Positions 4,565-57,707 of a stretch of 64,000 nt of DNA are shown here, one piece after another. Positions within the stretch are counted from its first letter, which is position 1. Every line of letters begins with the position of its first letter. Both the position numbers and the translations under genes were made by a program. Source of the stretch: Lachnospiraceae bacterium AC2028 (GTDB lineage: Bacteria > Bacillota > Clostridia > Lachnospirales > Lachnospiraceae); contig JNJD01000007.1 in NCBI GenBank assembly GCA_000702685.1, positions 186,001 to 250,000 on the forward strand, read 5' to 3'. Under the pieces are notes generated by a model, which worked only from the letters and a program-made list of their open reading frames with translations, was not told where the DNA came from and ran no database searches.

Positions 4565-5394
4565 TTTCTGACATTTCTCCACACCAGTAAAATCACAGCA
4601 AATGAAAGAAGCTGTGCGATGGCAACACGTACTATCATCATTTCATCGGTTCCGCTTGCAGTGACCACATGAAGCAGGTTTGTCGCAATGCAGTTATTGA
4701 AAAAGTGATCGGCCATTCCCGCATACAGATTCCCTGTCATGCGATAAAGGAGTTCCCATTTGATGCCCATCATACCTGCCAAGATGATATATCCAATGCC
4801 TAGTACAGCAAAAGATATAAAATTAATATCACCATCTATCAGATTATGAAGCGGTGTTACGATATGCCATACTCCGAACAAAAATGCCTGGAAGAACAAA
4901 GCATTTTTTGCCGGACGGTCCATAAGGACCATATTATAGAACAGGCCACGGAACGTGCCTTCCTCCATGATCACATTTATTATATTGAAGAAAATACACA
5001 TCAGTATAAAACCGACACCTGTGTGTATGGTCGCTTCTCCGGTCAGCGAAAAACCGGATGTGAATATCCCGAATCCGACGTCATTTCCCCGGCTCTTAAG
5101 GATAATGATCTCCACACCGTATGAAACAACAAATGAGCACAGTGCGATCAGCAATCCTGTTCCTATGCTTTTAAATATACCGGTTTTAGCAAACCCGATA
5201 TCAGACCATTTCATATTAAGGCATTTAAGCACCGCAAAAATGACAGCGATCCCGAATACCTTATTTATGAAGTTTTCACCAAAAACAGTTTCATCCATTC
5301 TGAGTACGATGGCTTCAAACCCATGTACACATATCAGGATCAAAAATATGATCAGGCAGGACCTTATCGGATTGTTTCTTATACGTTCCTTCAT
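4555..5394 (-). CDS. CPBP-family intramembrane metalloprotease
   Basis: The 279-residue multi-pass membrane protein carries the three conserved motifs of the CPBP (CAAX protease and bacteriocin-processing, Abi) family: EEGTFRG (Glu144, Glu145, Arg149), FGVWH (His177) and MADHFFNN (His230, Asn233). In the family these line an intramembrane metal site that cleaves membrane proteins. Bacterial members act in bacteriocin self-immunity and prenyl-protein-like processing. The gene follows the methyltransferase by 21 bases and overlaps the next membrane-protein gene. The substrate is unknown; another product of the operon is possible. Confidence 0.88.
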   Translation of the reverse strand: MKERIRNNPIRSCLIIFLILICVHGFEAIVLRMDETVFGENFINKVFGIAVIFAVLKCLNMKWSDIGFAKTGIFKSIGTGLLIALCSFVVSYGVEIIILKSRGNDVGFGIFTSGFSLTGEATIHTGVGFILMCIFFNIINVIMEEGTFRGLFYNMVLMDRPAKNALFFQAFLFGVWHIVTPLHNLIDGDINFISFAVLGIGYIILAGMMGIKWELLYRMTGNLYAGMADHFFNNCIATNLLHVVTASGTDEMMIVRVAIAQLLSFAVILLVWRNVRKCF

Positions 5395-5415
5395 TACTTT
5401 AGTTCCCTCATTTTC

Positions 5416-6177
5416 TTACATGTAATACCATGTAAAGAATACCTTATGCCTGACCGTGAAGCTTTCCGGATAATTCTCTTCAAGCATCCTTCGGTGTTCT
5501 TCATCAAACTGCGAAAGCTGCTCGGAATTCATCGAAGCCATGACCCCACGGCTGGTCATCATACGGCCGTGCCAGGTTTCTCTGGTAAACGGAATTTCCA
5601 CGATCATTGTTTCCGTATGCGGATCTTCGAAATAATGTGTTTTCAGATCCTGAATTGCCGGTGAAGCACCCGCCCAGTTACCGTTGATCTTCCTTACAAT
5701 TCCGTTGGAATCATGAGTTATCGATTCCTCTTTCATATAACTCATATATAATTTCAAAAAGAAACCGCCGGGTTTCAGCAGTGTTCTGATCAATGGCACA
5801 ACAGCATTCGGGTCAAAGTACCAGAAGCACTGGCATGCCGTAACGGCATCAAAGCTGTGCTCCGGATAAGAAACATTTTCCGATGCCATGACTTCGTACC
5901 TTATATTGGAATAATCCCTCGAAAGCTCAACAGCTTCGGCAATCTGCTGTTCCGAAATATCGGTAGCCACGATATCCGCGCCGTATTTAGCAAGCCCTCT
6001 CGGGATCACACCGGTTCCCGTACCAAGGTCCAGCCATCTGCTGCCCTGTACGCCTACACCGATCTCATGTAATTTTTCAAAAACCTCTTCAGGATAAATA
6101 TCCCTGTATTTTGCATAAGCCTTGGAAGTCTTTCCGAAATCAAAAGCCTTTCCGTCATCTACTATTATTTTTTCCAT
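5416..6177 (-). CDS. Class I SAM-dependent methyltransferase
   Basis: The 253-residue protein has motif I WLDLGTGTG (48-56), the post-I acidic residue in ATDIS, and AVTACQCFWYFD in the motif IV position. This is the pattern of Methyltransf_11/25 enzymes (trans-aconitate or UbiE-like). The N-terminus FDFGKTSKAYAKYRDIYP is typical of this subgroup. Its ATG overlaps the end of the GT2 glycosyltransferase gene by 13 bases. The context (glycosyltransferase, another methyltransferase, protease) suggests modification of a secreted or cell-surface compound, but that is inference. Confidence 0.87.
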   Translation of the reverse strand: MEKIIVDDGKAFDFGKTSKAYAKYRDIYPEEVFEKLHEIGVGVQGSRWLDLGTGTGVIPRGLAKYGADIVATDISEQQIAEAVELSRDYSNIRYEVMASENVSYPEHSFDAVTACQCFWYFDPNAVVPLIRTLLKPGGFFLKLYMSYMKEESITHDSNGIVRKINGNWAGASPAIQDLKTHYFEDPHTETMIVEIPFTRETWHGRMMTSRGVMASMNSEQLSQFDEEHRRMLEENYPESFTVRHKVFFTWYYM

Positions 6178-49919: not shown

Positions 49920-51104
49920 ATGGGCAAAAAAGCAAAATCCGACAATCTCATACCGGGAAACGGCAGAAAAAAAAGCCTGATAAGCAGGATAAAGGACTCA
50001 CATATCGCAGTGATAACCGTGATCCTGGTACTGGTCCTCCTTGTATGCTACGCCTGCTACATGCTCGGCGGTGCCAGGGAAGACGGCCTGAGCTTCTGGG
50101 ACGTAATAGTCTACAATCTGCTGGCACTTGCGGGTAACGATTACGAATTCACCGGAACACCCGCCGGAAGGATCCTGGGACTCATAGTACTGGTGCTCGG
50201 AGTCCTCGCACTTTCAACCATCACGGGTTATATCTCATCCGCCCTGGTCGCAAGCAAGCTTAACGCAGAAAGAGGTATCAAGAAAATGCAGAATATGAAA
50301 GATCACATCATCGTCTGCGGATGGAAAAACGACATAAAGAATCTCATCACCGGAATCCTCCGCAAGAACAGAAATCTTTCCGTATCGGACATAATCCTCA
50401 TCACGGGCGCGGATGACGTTAAGACCCAGGCATTAAAGGACGACCCCGTTCTTAAGGGGCTCAATCTTCTCAAGGGTGATTTCACCGAGGAACAGACTCT
50501 CAAAAATGCGGGCATCGGCGCCGCAGCCAAGGTTCTCATAATCGGCGAGAGCGGTGAGAACCTCGATGACGAGCTTATCGATTCCAGAGTATTTGTCACT
50601 GCGCTTCTGGCAAGAAATCTCAATTCAAAATGTCACATATGCGCTCAGATCCGTACCGAGCGCTATCGCAATTATCTCGAAGCACAGGGCTGCGCAGAGA
50701 TCATCTACACCGAGGAATATACACGCCACATTCTCACCACATCCACCAACTACAGCGGAATGAGCAAAGTCATGAGCTCGCTCCTCGATAACGGTGACGG
50801 CATTTCCGTCCAGATCGAGCCCGTTCCCGAAAAATGGATCGGCAGGAAATATTCCGAATTCTTCGATATGTACAAGAAGGAAAAGAATATCCTTCTGCTC
50901 GGCATCCTTGAAAATATGGGCGTCGAAAAAGAGATCAAGCACAGCATTCTGTCCGAAGCACAGAAATCAACAAATTACGGCGAGATCATTCAGCGTCTCA
51001 AGACCGTTAAATCCATGGAAACCAATAAGCCGCTCCTCAATCCCGGAGACGATTACCTCATCCCCGCCAATTCAGGAGCGATAATACTGGGAGCGGAGGT
51101 CTGA
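49920..51104 (+). CDS. CASTOR/POLLUX-like cation channel with RCK (TrkA-N) domains
   Basis: The 394-residue protein has membrane helix 1 (28-50), a pore loop and membrane helix 2 (84-108), then a cytoplasmic TrkA-N/RCK domain (HIIVCGWKNDIKNLITGIL, from about 128). The rest has a second RCK-like half with TNYSGMSKVMSSLLDNG. Where potassium channels have TVGYGD, this one has ALAGNDY (69-75), close to the ADxGNH filter of plant CASTOR/POLLUX channels. It is first in an operon with a cyclic-nucleotide-binding protein, whose ATG overlaps its stop (TGATG). Calcium or potassium permeation is undecided. Confidence 0.82.
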   Translation: MGKKAKSDNLIPGNGRKKSLISRIKDSHIAVITVILVLVLLVCYACYMLGGAREDGLSFWDVIVYNLLALAGNDYEFTGTPAGRILGLIVLVLGVLALSTITGYISSALVASKLNAERGIKKMQNMKDHIIVCGWKNDIKNLITGILRKNRNLSVSDIILITGADDVKTQALKDDPVLKGLNLLKGDFTEEQTLKNAGIGAAAKVLIIGESGENLDDELIDSRVFVTALLARNLNSKCHICAQIRTERYRNYLEAQGCAEIIYTEEYTRHILTTSTNYSGMSKVMSSLLDNGDGISVQIEPVPEKWIGRKYSEFFDMYKKEKNILLLGILENMGVEKEIKHSILSEAQKSTNYGEIIQRLKTVKSMETNKPLLNPGDDYLIPANSGAIILGAEV

Positions 51105-51586
51105 TGCAATACACGGAAAAACTCAAACAATTTCCCCTTTTTAATTCCATATCCGGTAAGGATCTTGAAGATTTCGCAGGGCTTTTGAAGGTTTCGAAAG
51201 CTTCCGCCGGCGAGAACATCATCACCGAAGGATCCACCGGGGCGGACATGTATTTCCTGATCGACGGAAGCGTCGACATCATCAAGACAACCGTCTTCGG
51301 CGAGAAATTCGTATGTGCCAGCCTCGACAGTGCGATGCACTGCGTATTCGGCGAAATGGCTCTGATCGACAGCGACACGAGATCGGCAACCGTCAAGGCA
51401 AGGACCGACTGCGTATCCTTAAGCATTTCCAAGAAGGACTTTGATTCCTTCGCGGATTCGCATCCGAATGCCGGCGTATCGCTCCTTCGTTTCATCGGGA
51501 TCAACCTCGTACGCAACATCCGCAAGGAAAACGAGAATCTTAACCTGGTCTACCAGGCACTTATAGAAGAGATAGAATCAAACTGA
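51104..51586 (+). CDS. Cyclic-nucleotide-binding domain protein
   Basis: The 160-residue protein is one CNB (cNMP/Crp-type) beta-roll: KLKQFPLFNSISGKDLEDFAGLL, then GENIITEGSTGADMYFLIDGSVDI, and the phosphate-binding cassette FGEMALIDSDTRSATV (82-97), with Glu84 and Arg93 in the ligand-binding positions. It has no helix-turn-helix, so it is not a CRP-type activator; helices follow to the end (LVYQALIEEIE). It overlaps the channel gene by one base, so it may gate or inform that channel as a separate subunit. Ligand binding is likely because the cassette is intact. Confidence 0.88.
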   Translation: MQYTEKLKQFPLFNSISGKDLEDFAGLLKVSKASAGENIITEGSTGADMYFLIDGSVDIIKTTVFGEKFVCASLDSAMHCVFGEMALIDSDTRSATVKARTDCVSLSISKKDFDSFADSHPNAGVSLLRFIGINLVRNIRKENENLNLVYQALIEEIESN

Positions 51587-51614: not shown

Positions 51615-54095
51615 ATGTACAGAACCGACGAACTGCTTTTGATCGAACATCTTACCTATATCCCCGACATCCCGCCTTTCTTTTCCATCCTTAAGGGCGA
51701 GGGAATGACCGTCGGAGAATTCCTCGAAAAGACCGATATGGATGCGCTTGATGCGGAGGTCACATATACGACCCAGATGAACGGTGATGATTTCCGCAAT
51801 GTCTTCCTCGCAATGAAAAAGAATACTTCCATTACGCAGGCGCGTATCGTCGATGCACATCTCGATACCGCATACGGAGCGGGCGGCGGAATATCGATAG
51901 TCGTCATCAATGATGGGGACGAACCCGGTGAGAACGGCAAGCATGAAGCGGTCGTTGCATTCAGGGGAACCGCGGAGAACGAATGGACCGACGATTTCGA
52001 AGGTGCGGCCCAGGTTGATTCGCTCCAGCAGATCAACGCTCTCGAGTGGTACAAGCAGGTTTACGACAAATACGAACTGGAGAATTACAACGTTACCGTC
52101 ATCGGTCACTCCAAAGGCGGCAACAAAGCCAAGTACATAACCATCTTAAACGACACCCCCTTCCGCTGCGTATCATTCGACGGACAGGGTTTTTCGGATA
52201 ATTTCTTTGATCATTACCGCAAGCGCATCATACAGCGCCAGGGCATCATCGAAAATCACAACATCGATTTTGACTACGTAAATATCCTGATGAACGATAT
52301 AGGTGAGAAGACCTATTACATCGGATATGATTACGGCAAATTCGGTTTTACGGAGGCCCACGCTCCCAATACATTCTTCGACTTCGGCGAGAACGGTGAA
52401 TACAACATCCGAGTCAATCCCGGCGGACAGCGCCCCGAGATGCAGATCATCGACCAGTTCATCAACAGCATGATCCGCTCCGCCGTCAGTGAAAAAGAAA
52501 GCGCCGAGACCAACTATCTCGTGGGAATCCTTGTCGAGAAGGCATTCTCTTTGTCAAACGGATGCGATGTATCGGAATTCATCGCATTCCTCTGTGATAT
52601 GATCGGAGATCCCAAATACTCCGACAATGTTGCGTACATACTCGCATACTGCATCCTCTATTCACGCAAGAATCCCGAGTTCCTCAAATCACTCAGGAGC
52701 ATAATGACCGCATTCAAAGCGGACGGCGTCCTCAAGATCATCGATATGGTCGACGATCTTGTAACTTCAAGAAAGCTCAATGCTCTTCTCGGAGTTACCG
52801 ATTTCCTTGTAGTACATGTAAACCGCCCGATCACCAAAAGCATAAGATCCTTCGTCAAAAAGAAATACGATGTCGATCTTAAACCGGACCAGGTAAGCAG
52901 CATTCTCAAGATTGCTTCGCTCACCCGTCATATGGTATCAAACCTCGAACTCAATATGGACGGATCCGACCTTCTCATTGAAGAAGTGCGCCTTACCGAG
53001 GATGAACTCAGGGAATTCGTTCTTCCCGGCAATCTCAATATCGTCGTTCTGGCAGGCGGTCTGTCCAACGAAAGAAACCTTTCCCTCAAGACCGGAGTAA
53101 CCGTTGCGGATACATTGAGGAGCAGGGGAAACAGCGTCATTCTCCTCGATGCGTTCATGGGATACGGGGATACCGAAGAGATCCTTCCCGACAACGTATT
53201 CGAAGCACCCTTTAAATATTCTCTTTCACCGGGCGACATCCCCGATGAGATACCCGATCTGTGGGCAACCAGAAAGCGCCGTCCGGATCAGTCCGGCGCA
53301 TACTTCGGCCCCAATGTTCTCCAGATCTGCAGACAGTCCGACCTCATATTCATCGCCCTCCACGGAGCAAACGGCGAAAACGGCAAGGTACAGGCGGCAT
53401 TCGACCTCCTCGGACTCGACTATACCGGATGCGATTATTTCTCATCCGCGATCTCGTCCAATAAATCCGCTGCAAAGCAACTTATGCAGACACTCGGTGT
53501 TCCTGTTCCCGCAGGTTACTGCATCAGGAAGGGAGCCGAATATCCCGATCCCGAACAGATGGGCCTTAAATATCCCGTCATCGTCAAGCCCAACAACGGC
53601 GGCATAGGTGTCGGAATATCGCTCGCATCGGATGTTACCGCTTATACAAAGGCCGTAAAGAGCGCATTCAGATGGGATACCGAGATTCTTGTCGAGGAAT
53701 ACTATCCCGGACGCGAATTCGCGGTATGTACGATCGAAGGCAAGGCTCTGCCGGTTCTCGAAAAGCTCCCGATGGAGACAAGCGACAAGGAAAAGGGCCT
53801 TTCGATGGACGGAAAATCGGTCGTCAAATGTCCTGCGGAGATTCCCGAAGAACTTGCCAAGGCTCTGCAGAAATCAGCGGAAGATGCTGCATTCGCCCTC
53901 GGCGTAAACGCTTATGCCAAGTTCGATTTCATCGTTTCTCAGGACAACGGCAGTTTTATCTGTCTCGAATGCGATTCCCTGCCCCAGCTCTATCCCGATT
54001 CCCACCTTGTCATTTCGGCCAAGGCTGCGGGAAGAAGCTTCGGCGATCTCTGCGACAAGATCATGGAGATCAGCCTCGTGAAAAAGGCAAACTAA
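51615..54095 (+). CDS. Fusion of a DUF2974-like alpha/beta hydrolase and a divergent D-Ala-D-Ala ligase
   Basis: The 826-residue protein has an N-terminal lipase-like alpha/beta hydrolase with FRGTAENEWTDDF and VTVIGHSKGGNKAKY (Ser166 nucleophile; DUF2974/Mbeg1-like). A mostly helical middle (about 290-470) leads to an ATP-grasp ligase with VVLAGGLSNERNLSLKTG, ALHGANGENGKVQAAFDLLGLDYTG, YPVIVKPNNGGIGVGI and EEYYPGREFAV. At the end, where Ddl has E-x-N-T-x-P-G, it reads ECDSLPQ (Glu785, Asp787). So the ATP site looks kept while the D-Ala-binding part differs. Its function is unproven. It starts 28 bases after the CNB gene. Confidence 0.85.
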   Translation: MYRTDELLLIEHLTYIPDIPPFFSILKGEGMTVGEFLEKTDMDALDAEVTYTTQMNGDDFRNVFLAMKKNTSITQARIVDAHLDTAYGAGGGISIVVINDGDEPGENGKHEAVVAFRGTAENEWTDDFEGAAQVDSLQQINALEWYKQVYDKYELENYNVTVIGHSKGGNKAKYITILNDTPFRCVSFDGQGFSDNFFDHYRKRIIQRQGIIENHNIDFDYVNILMNDIGEKTYYIGYDYGKFGFTEAHAPNTFFDFGENGEYNIRVNPGGQRPEMQIIDQFINSMIRSAVSEKESAETNYLVGILVEKAFSLSNGCDVSEFIAFLCDMIGDPKYSDNVAYILAYCILYSRKNPEFLKSLRSIMTAFKADGVLKIIDMVDDLVTSRKLNALLGVTDFLVVHVNRPITKSIRSFVKKKYDVDLKPDQVSSILKIASLTRHMVSNLELNMDGSDLLIEEVRLTEDELREFVLPGNLNIVVLAGGLSNERNLSLKTGVTVADTLRSRGNSVILLDAFMGYGDTEEILPDNVFEAPFKYSLSPGDIPDEIPDLWATRKRRPDQSGAYFGPNVLQICRQSDLIFIALHGANGENGKVQAAFDLLGLDYTGCDYFSSAISSNKSAAKQLMQTLGVPVPAGYCIRKGAEYPDPEQMGLKYPVIVKPNNGGIGVGISLASDVTAYTKAVKSAFRWDTEILVEEYYPGREFAVCTIEGKALPVLEKLPMETSDKEKGLSMDGKSVVKCPAEIPEELAKALQKSAEDAAFALGVNAYAKFDFIVSQDNGSFICLECDSLPQLYPDSHLVISAKAAGRSFGDLCDKIMEISLVKKAN

Positions 54096-54125: not shown

Positions 54126-54158
54126 CAAGCCCGTCCTCATCCGGCGGGCTTGTTTTTT
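54126..54158 (+). terminator. Rho-independent terminator of the channel operon
   Basis: An 8-bp stem (CAAGCCCG 54126-54133 with CGGGCTTG 54145-54152) is followed by TTTTTT. It lies 30 bases past the ligase-fusion stop. Confidence 0.9.
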
Positions 54159-54207
54159 GCCGTATTTTCGCGCTTTTGAAGGCTTTTGAAATTTTTTTAT
54201 TTTTTTG

Positions 54208-54236
54208 TTGACAACCTACGACTGTCGTAGTATATT
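54208..54236 (+). promoter_or_regulatory. PadR operon promoter with operator in the spacer
   Basis: TTGACA (54208-54213) and TATATT (54231-54236) with a 17-base spacer. The spacer contains the perfect palindrome CTACGACTGTCGTAG (54216-54230), so a bound repressor would block RNA polymerase. Confidence 0.85.
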
Positions 54237-54248
54237 TACCACATCAGA

Positions 54249-54303
54249 CATAGTACGACTGTCGTAGTACGATAAACATAGTACGGCTGGCATAGTACGA
54301 CTG
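54249..54303 (+). repeat. Array of PadR-type operator copies
   Basis: CATAGTACGRCTG occurs three times at 54249-54261, 54277-54289 and 54291-54303 (spacing 28 and 14). The first is part of a perfect palindrome, TACGACTGTCGTA (54254-54266). With the spacer site this gives at least four related sites upstream of the padR gene. Confidence 0.75.
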
Positions 54304-54375: not shown

Positions 54376-54714
54376 ATGGTAGAGATCAGCTCAGATGTGA
54401 TCCGCGGTTATAACGACACAATGATCCTAAGCATTCTCATGAACGGCCCCTCATACGGGTACGAGATCTCCAAGCAGATCAAGAGCATCACCGATGAGAA
54501 ATATGTCATCAAGGAAACAACGCTCTACTCGGCTTTCACGAGAATGGAAAAGAACGGACATATCGAATCGTTCACCGCAGATCAGGACGGAAGCGGAAAC
54601 GGTAAAAAGAGAACCTATTACCGCATAACAGACTTAGGAATGCAGTATTACAGAGCAAAATGCGAAGAATGGGATATAACCCAGGAAGTCGTTTCTAAGT
54701 TTATCAGGCATTAA
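54376..54714 (+). CDS. PadR-family transcriptional repressor
   Basis: The 112-residue protein is a PadR winged helix: VIRGYNDTMILSILMNGPSYGYEISKQI, then ETTLYSAFTRMEKNGHIES and KKRTYYRITDLGMQYY (wing). The short C-terminal helix makes the dimer. GGAGGACACAT precedes the ATG. It is the first gene of an operon with DUF1700 and DUF4097 proteins, and is expected to repress itself through the sites at 54216-54303. Related modules respond to envelope stress or antimicrobials. Confidence 0.93.
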   Translation: MVEISSDVIRGYNDTMILSILMNGPSYGYEISKQIKSITDEKYVIKETTLYSAFTRMEKNGHIESFTADQDGSGNGKKRTYYRITDLGMQYYRAKCEEWDITQEVVSKFIRH

Positions 54715-56480: not shown

Positions 56481-56515
56481 AAAAAAGGGGAGCCTTGCGG
56501 CTTCCCTTTTTCAGT
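56481..56515. terminator. Bidirectional terminator after the DUF4097 gene
   Basis: AAAAAGGGGAGCC pairs with GGCTTCCCTTTTT around a TTGC loop, with one G-T pair. It lies between convergent genes and serves both strands. Confidence 0.88.
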
Positions 56516-57707
56516 CTATCAACATTCTGACTCTGTTGAAATAATTCATCTTCGAACCGCTCATATCCGGTTCAAGCACGGAAATGGAAGAACCGGGATA
56601 TTTTCTCTTAAGATAGGGATAAAGTCCTCTTCCCTCGCAGACATTCGGCATACATCCGAAAGGAGCGATGCAGAGCACTTTCTTAATATCATTTTCAATG
56701 TAATCTATAAGTTCGGCTCCCATCAGCCATCCGTCGCCTATCTGAAAATTATGGGATACGATCTCTCTGGAATTTTCATCAAGCGTATTATATGAACTGA
56801 GGGCTTTGAAACCGTACTTTGTCATGGTCTCTCTCATAGAATCCTGCAGATCTACCATCAGCTTTTTCACGAACTCAAAGCCGAGTCTTTCGAGGTTCAT
56901 CTTATCGGGCTTATGGGAATCGATATAATAAAGCATATAGTATGACAGACCGTTCACATACGCTTCGCATTTATTGTCTTCGAGATAATCTATAAGATCC
57001 CAGTTTCCGAGAGCACAGTACTTAACGTAGAATTCTCCCACCACTCCTATTACCTGACGCGGCTTACCATCCTTTTTTATTGCCGCGAAGGATTCGGATA
57101 TCTTCGCGAAATTCTTTTTCATTTTTCCGAGTGAAAGATTCCTTCCGAGCCTGAGGTCTTCGGAAAGCACTTCTATCCAGTGATCATACAGAGCCGTTGT
57201 TTCACCCTTGTTTACTTCGTAAGGTCTCACCTGGTTCGACAGCATCATCAGGATGTCCCCGTAAAAGAGTCCGAACAATCCGCGTATCGCGGTATCGAGA
57301 TTTATCCTGAGAGAAATGTCGTCACGAACGTGACGTACATTTATGGTCATGACACGGACTTCATCAAATCCCGCTCTCTTAAGTGCCCTTGTCATAAGCC
57401 CCATATAGCATGCTCCCCTGCAGGCATCGCCGGCCGTCGGAATCAGGATGAAGGTTTTCTTCGGATCATATTTTCCGGTCTTAAGCGCAATGATCGTCTG
57501 TCCCGCTATCAGAATGAAGGGATAACAGATATCATGGTTGGTATATTTCATACCCTCCTGTCTTATCGTGAACTCATCTCCTTCATCAAGCAGTTCACAT
57601 TTATAGCCCTTGCTCCAGAACATATACTTGAGCAACGGAAAATGGCCGTCCAGCGTTGCGGGCAGCAGGATGGTATTTTCCTCGTTGTCACTCAGTATCT
57701 TATACAT
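56511..57707 (-). CDS. 2-hydroxyacyl-CoA dehydratase (HgdB/activase)-related protein
   Basis: The 398-residue protein has Cys residues in the pattern of 2-hydroxyglutaryl-CoA dehydratase D-component and CoA-activase C-terminal regions: NHDICYPF (Cys61), GDACRGACYMG (Cys96, Cys100) and APFGCMPNVCEGRG (Cys352, Cys357). These bind a [4Fe-4S] cluster in the family. In most genomes this region is fused to activase ATPase domains; here it stands alone, and no BcrAD/HgdC activase gene is near. It starts 3 bases after the AlkD-like gene ends. The substrate is unknown. Confidence 0.72.
   Translation of the reverse strand: MYKILSDNEENTILLPATLDGHFPLLKYMFWSKGYKCELLDEGDEFTIRQEGMKYTNHDICYPFILIAGQTIIALKTGKYDPKKTFILIPTAGDACRGACYMGLMTRALKRAGFDEVRVMTINVRHVRDDISLRINLDTAIRGLFGLFYGDILMMLSNQVRPYEVNKGETTALYDHWIEVLSEDLRLGRNLSLGKMKKNFAKISESFAAIKKDGKPRQVIGVVGEFYVKYCALGNWDLIDYLEDNKCEAYVNGLSYYMLYYIDSHKPDKMNLERLGFEFVKKLMVDLQDSMRETMTKYGFKALSSYNTLDENSREIVSHNFQIGDGWLMGAELIDYIENDIKKVLCIAPFGCMPNVCEGRGLYPYLKRKYPGSSISVLEPDMSGSKMNYFNRVRMLID

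What the first reader, a model, noticed from the sequence alone, without database searches (positions are those of the whole stretch)
51615..54095. Alpha/beta hydrolase fused to a divergent D-Ala-D-Ala ligase
One 826-residue frame joins a lipase-like hydrolase (GHSKGG, Ser166) to an ATP-grasp ligase with Ddl signatures (GGLSNERNLS, HGANGENG, KPNNGGIG). I know of no established pathway with this pairing. The Ddl motif for D-Ala and Mg (E-x-N-T-x-P-G) reads ECDSLPQ, so Asn becomes Asp and Gly becomes Gln. The ligase may join another acid and amine, and the hydrolase could release or provide one partner, for example an acyl group or an ester.
Basis: partly seen in the sequence, partly recalled or inferred. 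Interest (0 to 1): 0.82.

Follow-up and report, generated by a model that had tools for sequence, protein, structure and literature searches.

The report
Lipase fused to repurposed cell-wall ligase
Some gut bacteria carry a two-headed protein, half lipase-like enzyme and half a cell-wall ligase whose active site has been rebuilt, encoded beside an ion channel and a cyclic-nucleotide sensor, so it probably does a new job that can now be tested.

Summary
Window 51615-54095 (+) is one unbroken 826-residue frame joining a Mbeg1-like (lipase-type) serine hydrolase to an ATP-grasp domain of the D-Ala-D-Ala ligase (Ddl) fold. It is no assembly artefact: 18 full-length copies, one split over two contigs and one edge fragment were found, all in Lachnospiraceae, with low dN/dS. 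All 19 copies whose ligase could be read replaced the Ddl motif E-x-N-T-x-P-G-M-T by E-C-D-S-L-P-Q-L-Y and also changed the lid loop and oxyanion residues, while keeping the ATP/Mg core; 43 of 43 readable free relatives are canonical. All 16 carriers found in the genus have another Ddl. The ligase half forms one clade on a long stem: repurposed once, then constrained. The gene follows an RCK-domain channel gene and a single-domain cyclic-nucleotide-binding gene in one tight unit. Two of five free hydrolase relatives have type-VII-secretion-like neighbours, but none of the 16 genus carriers has a detectable WXG100 gene, so the fused form is probably captured and cytosolic. Best reading: an active esterase plus a neofunctionalised ATP-grasp ligase serving a channel/cNMP unit. 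Substrates are unknown; a pseudoenzyme ATP sensor is the main rival.

The parts
49920..51104 (+). RCK-domain ion channel (394 aa), two TM helices and a pore segment LAGNDYEF without TVGYG (TM helices and pore read by eye)
   Evidence: Pfam Slo-like_RCK E 3e-11, TrkA_N E 3e-7; upstream of the cNMP gene in 14 of 15 related loci, truncated in L042/L135, interrupted in L136
51104..51586 (+). Single-domain cyclic-nucleotide-binding protein (160 aa), cassette FGEMALIDSDTRSATV, no DNA-binding domain found by Pfam
   Evidence: Pfam cNMP_binding E 1.2e-16, its only match; PDB sequence matches are mostly PKA/PKG-type regulatory domains, also SthK and PycTIR; its ATG overlaps the channel stop by one base
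51615..54095 (+). 826-aa hydrolase-ligase fusion
51615..52484 (+). Lipase/PLA1-like alpha/beta hydrolase domain (residues 1-290)
   Evidence: Pfam Mbeg1-like; model pLDDT 80.8 for residues 1-465; Foldseek best 7x0d phospholipase A1 E 1.3e-3, then 3ngm lipase and 9cys T6SS lipase effector, all weak
52104..52121 (+). Nucleophile elbow GHSKGG, Ser166
   Evidence: G164 H165 S166 K167 G168 invariant in 21 of 21 aligned relatives, 16 fused and 5 free
52359..52361 (+). His249, probable catalytic histidine; Asp189 and Asp220 are invariant acid candidates
   Evidence: invariant in 21 of 21; role inferred
52485..53009 (+). Helical linker domain (residues 291-465), also present in free hydrolases L054 and L055
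   Evidence: all-helical in the model, aligned
53010..54092 (+). Ddl-fold ATP-grasp domain (residues 466-826)
   Evidence: model pLDDT 90.0; Foldseek 8evw DdlA E 5e-32, TM (target) 0.85
53586..53609 (+). Glycine-rich loop KPNNGGIG (canonical KPxxGGSS): Ser150 to Ile, Ser151 to Gly
   Evidence: Ile in 19/19, Gly in 18/19 and Ser in 1/19 fused; Ser-Ser in 43/43 readable free rows
53769..53813 (+). Rebuilt lid (omega) loop PMETSDKEKGLSMDG in place of P..GFYDYKNKY.AG
   Evidence: Lys215 and Tyr216 equivalents lost in 19/19 fused, kept in 43/43 free; pLDDT under 50 in the model
53919..53921 (+). Lys769 in place of DdlB Arg255
   Evidence: K 18, N 1 of 19 fused; R 43/43 free
53967..53987 (+). ECDSLPQ in place of ExNTxPG (Asn272 to Asp, Gly276 to Gln)
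   Evidence: 19/19 fused; N and G in 43/43 free
54142..54162 (+). Candidate intrinsic terminator just after the fusion gene
   Evidence: 6 such sites in the region, 4.9 expected by chance, so weak on its own

Best explanation
A cytosolic bifunctional enzyme, perhaps membrane-facing, that is the enzymatic arm of a three-gene channel / cNMP-sensor / enzyme unit. The N-terminal half is a serine esterase of the lipase/phospholipase-A type, related to hydrolases that some other Lachnospiraceae carry beside type-VII-secretion-like genes. The C-terminal half descends from a free D-Ala-D-Ala ligase of the Lachnospiraceae; it still binds ATP and Mg and activates a carboxylate, but its acceptor site, oxyanion residues and lid were rebuilt once, so it joins a different pair of substrates. 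Shown: the frame, its conservation and selection, gene order, residue changes, presence of a separate Ddl. Inferred: both activities, cytosolic location, functional link to channel and cNMP protein. Unknown: substrates.
For: Fusion in 18 full-length copies with dN/dS 0.02-0.11 in all three segments of 11 pairs. ATP/Mg-core residues (DdlB E15, H63, K97, K144, E180, E187, D257, E270) kept in 19/19 while S150, K215, Y216, N272, G276, M277, T278 and L282 are changed in 19/19 and R255 is K/N; free rows canonical in 43/43. Among 22 functional sites that I chose after seeing the alignment, 15 are fixed in the fused set against 134 of 339 other columns (Fisher p 0.012, indicative only), which speaks for a new constraint rather than decay. 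Fused rows form one clade (SH-aLRT 100, quick tree) on a stem of 1.48 changes per column. All 16 carriers in the genus sample have another Ddl. Hydrolase Ser166 and His249 invariant in 21/21. Channel, cNMP gene and fusion lie together; a strong channel match is found in 15 of 16 genus carriers (partial or interrupted in two of them) and in 0 of 15 genomes without a detected fusion. No WXG100 match in 16 of 16 genus carriers. A class III cyclase is present in the own genome.
Against: No activity is shown for either half. Loss of the Lys215 equivalent removes a residue that in DdlB contacts the phosphates (recalled). The lid is disordered in the model. Foldseek support for the lipase half is weak (best E 1.3e-3, TM about 0.3) and sequence search of the PDB gave nothing better than E 0.05. 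Cyclase presence does not track the fusion (13 of 16 carriers, 11 of 15 others). In two genomes the channel is truncated or interrupted while fusion and cNMP gene are intact, so the channel is not strictly needed. No interaction between the three products was tested.
Confidence: 0.5

Rival explanations
1. The ligase half is a pseudoenzyme: it binds ATP/Mg but no longer makes a bond, and acts as an energy sensor or scaffold that switches the lipase on or off.
For: Loss of lid residues Lys215/Tyr216, Ser150 and the Gly276 oxyanion position in 19/19; Asn272 to Asp alters the Mg site; lid disordered in the model.
Against: ATP and Mg core kept in 19/19 and functional-site columns fixed more often than the rest; the rebuilt lid is itself largely conserved (LP[MLF]ET.[DN][KR] in 16 of 19 rows), which suggests a new function over the active site.
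Confidence: 0.28
2. The ligase half still joins D-Ala (first subsite, Glu15 kept) to another acceptor and feeds a variant cell-wall or D-amino-acid product, like the VanA/VanC type shift.
For: Glu15 equivalent kept in 19/19 and Ser281 equivalent in 15/19; descent from Lachnospiraceae Ddl, several of them beside Mur ligase genes; Tyr216 is also the residue changed in D-Ala-D-Lac ligases (recalled).
Against: No Mur ligase among the nine neighbouring window proteins scanned; VanA-type enzymes keep ExN and G276 (recalled), and the Van models listed score far below their cut-offs here; the nearest neighbours are a channel and a cNMP protein.
Confidence: 0.15
3. The protein is a type VII secreted antibacterial effector of the TslA kind whose C-terminal half was swapped.
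For: Of five free relatives, L054 has a WXG100-like neighbour (E 1e-5, just below the curated cut-off) and L056 an FtsK/FHA ATPase of EssC type; L054 and L057 have Ser/Thr kinases. TslA has an N-terminal phospholipase and a C-terminal helical targeting domain (PMC10730906, passages read).
Against: No WXG100 match in 16 of 16 genus carriers (the other carriers were not searched); an ATP-grasp domain needs cytosolic ATP; none of the nine window neighbours scanned matches WXG100.
Confidence: 0.04
4. The three genes form an anti-phage unit: a cNMP alarm opens the channel and activates the lipase.
For: The cNMP protein matches the PycTIR sensor part (E 9e-18); channel plus lipase would both hit the membrane.
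Against: No cyclase in the unit; no PADLOC match for the channel and only a chance-level one for the fusion; distribution bound to one part of one family in what was searched; no full-length copy found on plasmids, phages or viral contigs.
Confidence: 0.03

Closest known systems
D-alanine-D-alanine ligase (Ddl; PF01820 + PF07478; E. coli DdlB, P. aeruginosa DdlA 8evw)
   Same: Whole fold (Foldseek E 5e-32), ATP/Mg core residues, N-terminal ER..S motif
   Different: Lid loop, Arg255, Ser150, Asn272, Gly276, Thr278, Leu282 replaced in all fused copies read; fused to a hydrolase; another Ddl present in the 16 genus carriers
Free Ddl of Lachnospiraceae (e.g. L063, L065, L067)
   Same: Nearest relatives of the ligase half, best about 43-47% identical
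   Different: Canonical active site, not fused; a Mur ligase lies beside it in five of nine loci with a scanned neighbour, called MurF by NCBIfam in the two tested
Mbeg1-like/DUF2974 hydrolases (L054-L058) and TslA phospholipase
   Same: Catalytic Ser and His (21 of 21), helical domain after the hydrolase in L054 and L055
   Different: Fused copies end in a ligase, and genus carriers show no WXG100. TslA itself was not compared by sequence here
CASTOR/POLLUX RCK channels
   Same: TM-pore-TM then RCK; filter with AGN and no TVGYG (CASTOR filter AD265S(A)GNHA, PMC6697748, passages read)
   Different: Short (394 aa), lacks the filter Asp265; membership not shown (no Castor_Poll_mid match for it)

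Membership tests
D-alanine-D-alanine ligase | Ddl N and C domains above curated Pfam cut-offs | tested here: met
   64.8 and 85.5 bits
D-alanine-D-alanine ligase | NCBIfam Ddl models above cut-off | tested here: not met
   best 203.1 bits against cut-off 243; TIGR01205 187.7 against 245.65; none of the 25 listed (of 60) passes
D-alanine-D-alanine ligase | E-x-N-T-x-P-G-M-T with Mg ligand Asn and oxyanion Gly | tested here: not met
   ECDSLPQLY in 19/19 fused
D-alanine-D-alanine ligase | Lid Lys215/Tyr216, Arg255, Ser150 | tested here: not met
D-alanine-D-alanine ligase | ATP-dependent D-Ala-D-Ala synthesis | not testable with these tools
   needs an assay
ATP-grasp superfamily | Fold plus ATP/Mg residues (two Lys, Asp, Glu) | tested here: met
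   the Asn Mg ligand is Asp
Mbeg1-like / lipase-type hydrolase | Family match, GxSxG nucleophile and conserved His | tested here: met
   PF11187 37.4 bits against 21.1; invariants
TslA-type T7SS effector | T7SS in the genome (WXG100 marker) | tested here: not met
   0 of 16 genus carriers
TslA-type T7SS effector | C-terminal helical targeting domain at the end of the protein | tested here: not met
   helical part is internal, followed by the ligase
Pycsar defence | Cyclase encoded beside a cNMP-binding effector | tested here: not met
   no cyclase in the three-gene unit; the own genome's only PF00211 match is on contig C8

The most novel reading that the evidence does not exclude
A new signalling or membrane-homeostasis unit in which a cyclic nucleotide and ion flux control a two-step enzyme: the lipase head frees an acyl or head-group product at the membrane and the repurposed Ddl head conjugates it, with ATP, to an amino acid or amine, giving a lipid-amino-acid type product made by a Ddl-derived enzyme.
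Probability: 0.13. Interest if true: 0.85.

Novelty: new variant of a known kind. Interest (0 to 1): 0.6.

Why it matters
It looks like a clear natural case of a cell-wall ligase repurposed after fusion, with a small set of diagnostic residue changes, a single origin on the tree and unfused canonical relatives for comparison. It also points to a three-gene unit linking an RCK-domain channel without the K+ filter, a lone cyclic-nucleotide sensor and an enzyme; I came across no description of it, but made no paper search for that gene order as such. If the reading is right, calling the gene a second D-Ala-D-Ala ligase on domain matches alone would be wrong.

Tried and rejected
Assembly join or frameshift: rejected. 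Chance motif: rejected. Plain Ddl: rejected on residues and NCBIfam cut-offs. Mobile origin: in plasmids 555 records matched and in phages 22, none with one place covering 80% of the query; the ten best shown of each cover 29-56% on the ligase side; no pattern match in viral contigs. Cyclase co-occurrence as support for cNMP signalling: no association. Known defence system: no. Profile search of the PDB with the hydrolase half gave only weak hits (feruloyl esterase E 0.05). Paper searches: 'ATP-grasp' + 'D-alanine-D-alanine ligase' + 'lipase domain' + 'fusion' gave 0 papers; DUF2974 6 papers and Mbeg1-like/PF11187 5 papers, listings only, none naming this pairing in title or shown abstract; TslA 9 papers, 8 listed; CASTOR/POLLUX filter and RCK 2; two searches for DdlB residue roles gave 0. 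So roles of DdlB residues are recalled; their numbers were counted along the 1iow/1iov alignment and agree. No search was made for papers on the channel-cNMP-enzyme gene order as such.

Full report
What is there. Pfam finds Mbeg1-like (110-202), Dala_Dala_lig_N (475-606) and Dala_Dala_lig_C (623-818), all over cut-off. The same three matches are found in the divergent copies L142, L050 and L136.

It is conserved. One scan of the species-genome collection found 15 other full-length copies at 64-91% identity, in records named Lachnospiraceae or Acetatifactor, plus an edge fragment. In the window's genus 14 of 31 genomes (own included) have a full-length match, G160 has it split over two contigs and G163 has a 33-residue edge piece; I count these 16 as carriers. 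Collapsing identical copies leaves 18 full-length ones, the split one and the fragment. In a draw of 149 genomes of the family (own included) no listed match outside the own genome covers both halves in one frame; the list was cut. The hydrolase half alone matched 37 of 391 genomes of the class, own included; the long frames among those (693-954 aa) were not checked for a ligase. dN/dS is 0.018-0.107 in the hydrolase, helical and ligase segments of 11 pairs.

The ligase half. Its nearest free relatives (about 43-47% identical) are Ddl genes. Of 10 neighbour proteins scanned from 9 such loci, five were Mur ligases by Pfam and two nicotinate phosphoribosyltransferases; the other three were unrelated. 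Two of the five Mur ligases were also scanned with NCBIfam and pass the MurF model. The own genome has another Ddl on contig C11, and all 16 carriers in the genus have one: 14 of the own C11 type and 2 of the nearer free type. Aligning 19 fused and 44 free sequences (one free row, L127, has no letters at these columns) shows a clean split: E15, H63, K97, K144, E180, E187, D257 and E270 are kept in 19/19, while S150 (I 19), S151 (G 18, S 1), K215 (L/M), Y216 (T/S/N), R255 (K 18, N 1), N272 (D 19), G276 (Q 19), M277 (L 19), T278 (Y 19) and L282 (H/D/Q) are changed; free rows are canonical in 43/43 at each of these ten sites. Numbers were counted along the alignment to E. coli DdlB 1iow/1iov; residue roles are recalled. 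The lid changes from GFYDYKNKY to TSDKEKGLS-like; the exact pairing of residues inside the lid depends on the alignment. Fifteen of 22 sites, chosen by me after seeing the alignment, are fixed among fused copies against 134 of 339 others (p 0.012, indicative). In a quick tree of 63 rows the 19 fused rows are one clade (SH-aLRT 100) on a stem of 1.48 changes per column, among the free Lachnospiraceae Ddl of other genera and not with the nine free Ddl rows of the own genus; the long stem and the very distant outgroup make the exact attachment unsure. The model (pLDDT 90) matches P. aeruginosa DdlA with TM 0.85 over the target.

The hydrolase half. Ser166 and His249 are invariant among 21 aligned sequences, 16 fused and 5 free; Asp189 and Asp220 are the invariant candidates for the acid. 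The model (pLDDT 80.8) is closest in Foldseek to phospholipase A1 7x0d, a fungal lipase and a T6SS lipase effector, at weak E-values (1.3e-3 to 1e-2). Of the five free relatives, L054 lies near a WXG100-like protein (26.2 bits, cut-off 27.3) and beside a Ser/Thr kinase, L056 downstream of an FtsK/FHA ATPase of EssC type, L057 beside a kinase; L055 lies beside Ig-like proteins instead, and for L058 no neighbour was scanned. This suggests kinship with type VII lipases such as TslA, a phospholipase A with reversed domain order (PMC10730906, passages only), though TslA was not compared by sequence. WXG100 was found in 4 of 31 genus genomes, none of them carriers.

The unit. Upstream lie an RCK-domain channel (49920-51104) and a 160-aa cyclic-nucleotide-binding protein (51104-51586); stop and start overlap by one base, and 28 bases separate the latter from the fusion. 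A terminator-like hairpin follows at 54142-54162, though such sites are about as frequent here as by chance. The cNMP gene was found upstream of the fusion in all 15 full-length loci, next to it in 12 and one gene away in L050-L052, where a 231-aa gene lies between (no Pfam match for the L050 copy), and next to it in L136, L138 and L142. The channel is present over most of its length in 14 of those 15 loci and truncated in L042; it is interrupted in L136. A strong channel match occurs in 15 of 16 genus carriers, partial in G165 and interrupted in G171, and in none of the 15 other genus genomes, three of which have weak ones of 18-22% identity. In the family draw the only strong match among 148 genomes is the own genome's; nine others are 22-31% identical. 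The pore segment LAGNDYEF lacks TVGYG and recalls the CASTOR filter AD265S(A)GNHA (passages); this is a resemblance, not membership. A class III cyclase exists in the own genome but cyclases do not track the fusion (13 of 16 carriers, 11 of 15 others).

Mechanism. I commit to an active esterase plus a neofunctionalised ATP-grasp ligase in a channel/cNMP unit (0.5), with a pseudoenzyme ATP sensor (0.28) as chief rival. The kept ATP/Mg core, the conserved new residues and low dN/dS favour the first; loss of lid Lys/Tyr and of the oxyanion Gly favour the second. Substrates cannot be read from sequence.

Noticed in passing
window 54205-54300: Several near-copies of TACGACTGTCGTAGTA (by eye) lie around a promoter-like site at 54208-54236 upstream of the padR gene (54376-54714); perhaps PadR operators (inference).
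   Followed up: no
window 56511-57707 (-): 398-aa protein without Pfam match at E 0.001 although conserved at 71-91% in related loci.
   Followed up: no
L050-L052, about 5286-5980: A 231-aa gene lies between the cNMP gene and the fusion; the L050 copy has no Pfam or PADLOC match.
   Followed up: partly
L042/L135 and L136: The channel gene is truncated or interrupted while the cNMP gene and fusion stay intact.
   Followed up: partly
L054, L056, L057: Free Mbeg1-like hydrolases of 512-559 aa; L054 and L056 have type-VII-like neighbours (WXG100-like protein below cut-off; FtsK/FHA ATPase), L054 and L057 a Ser/Thr kinase; candidate reverse-order secreted lipases.
   Followed up: partly
G000:C8:226774-227289 (L144): The genome's only class III cyclase match lies in a frame of about 600 residues whose N-terminal part looks like an extracellular sensor followed by TM helices (by eye; not scanned).
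   Followed up: no
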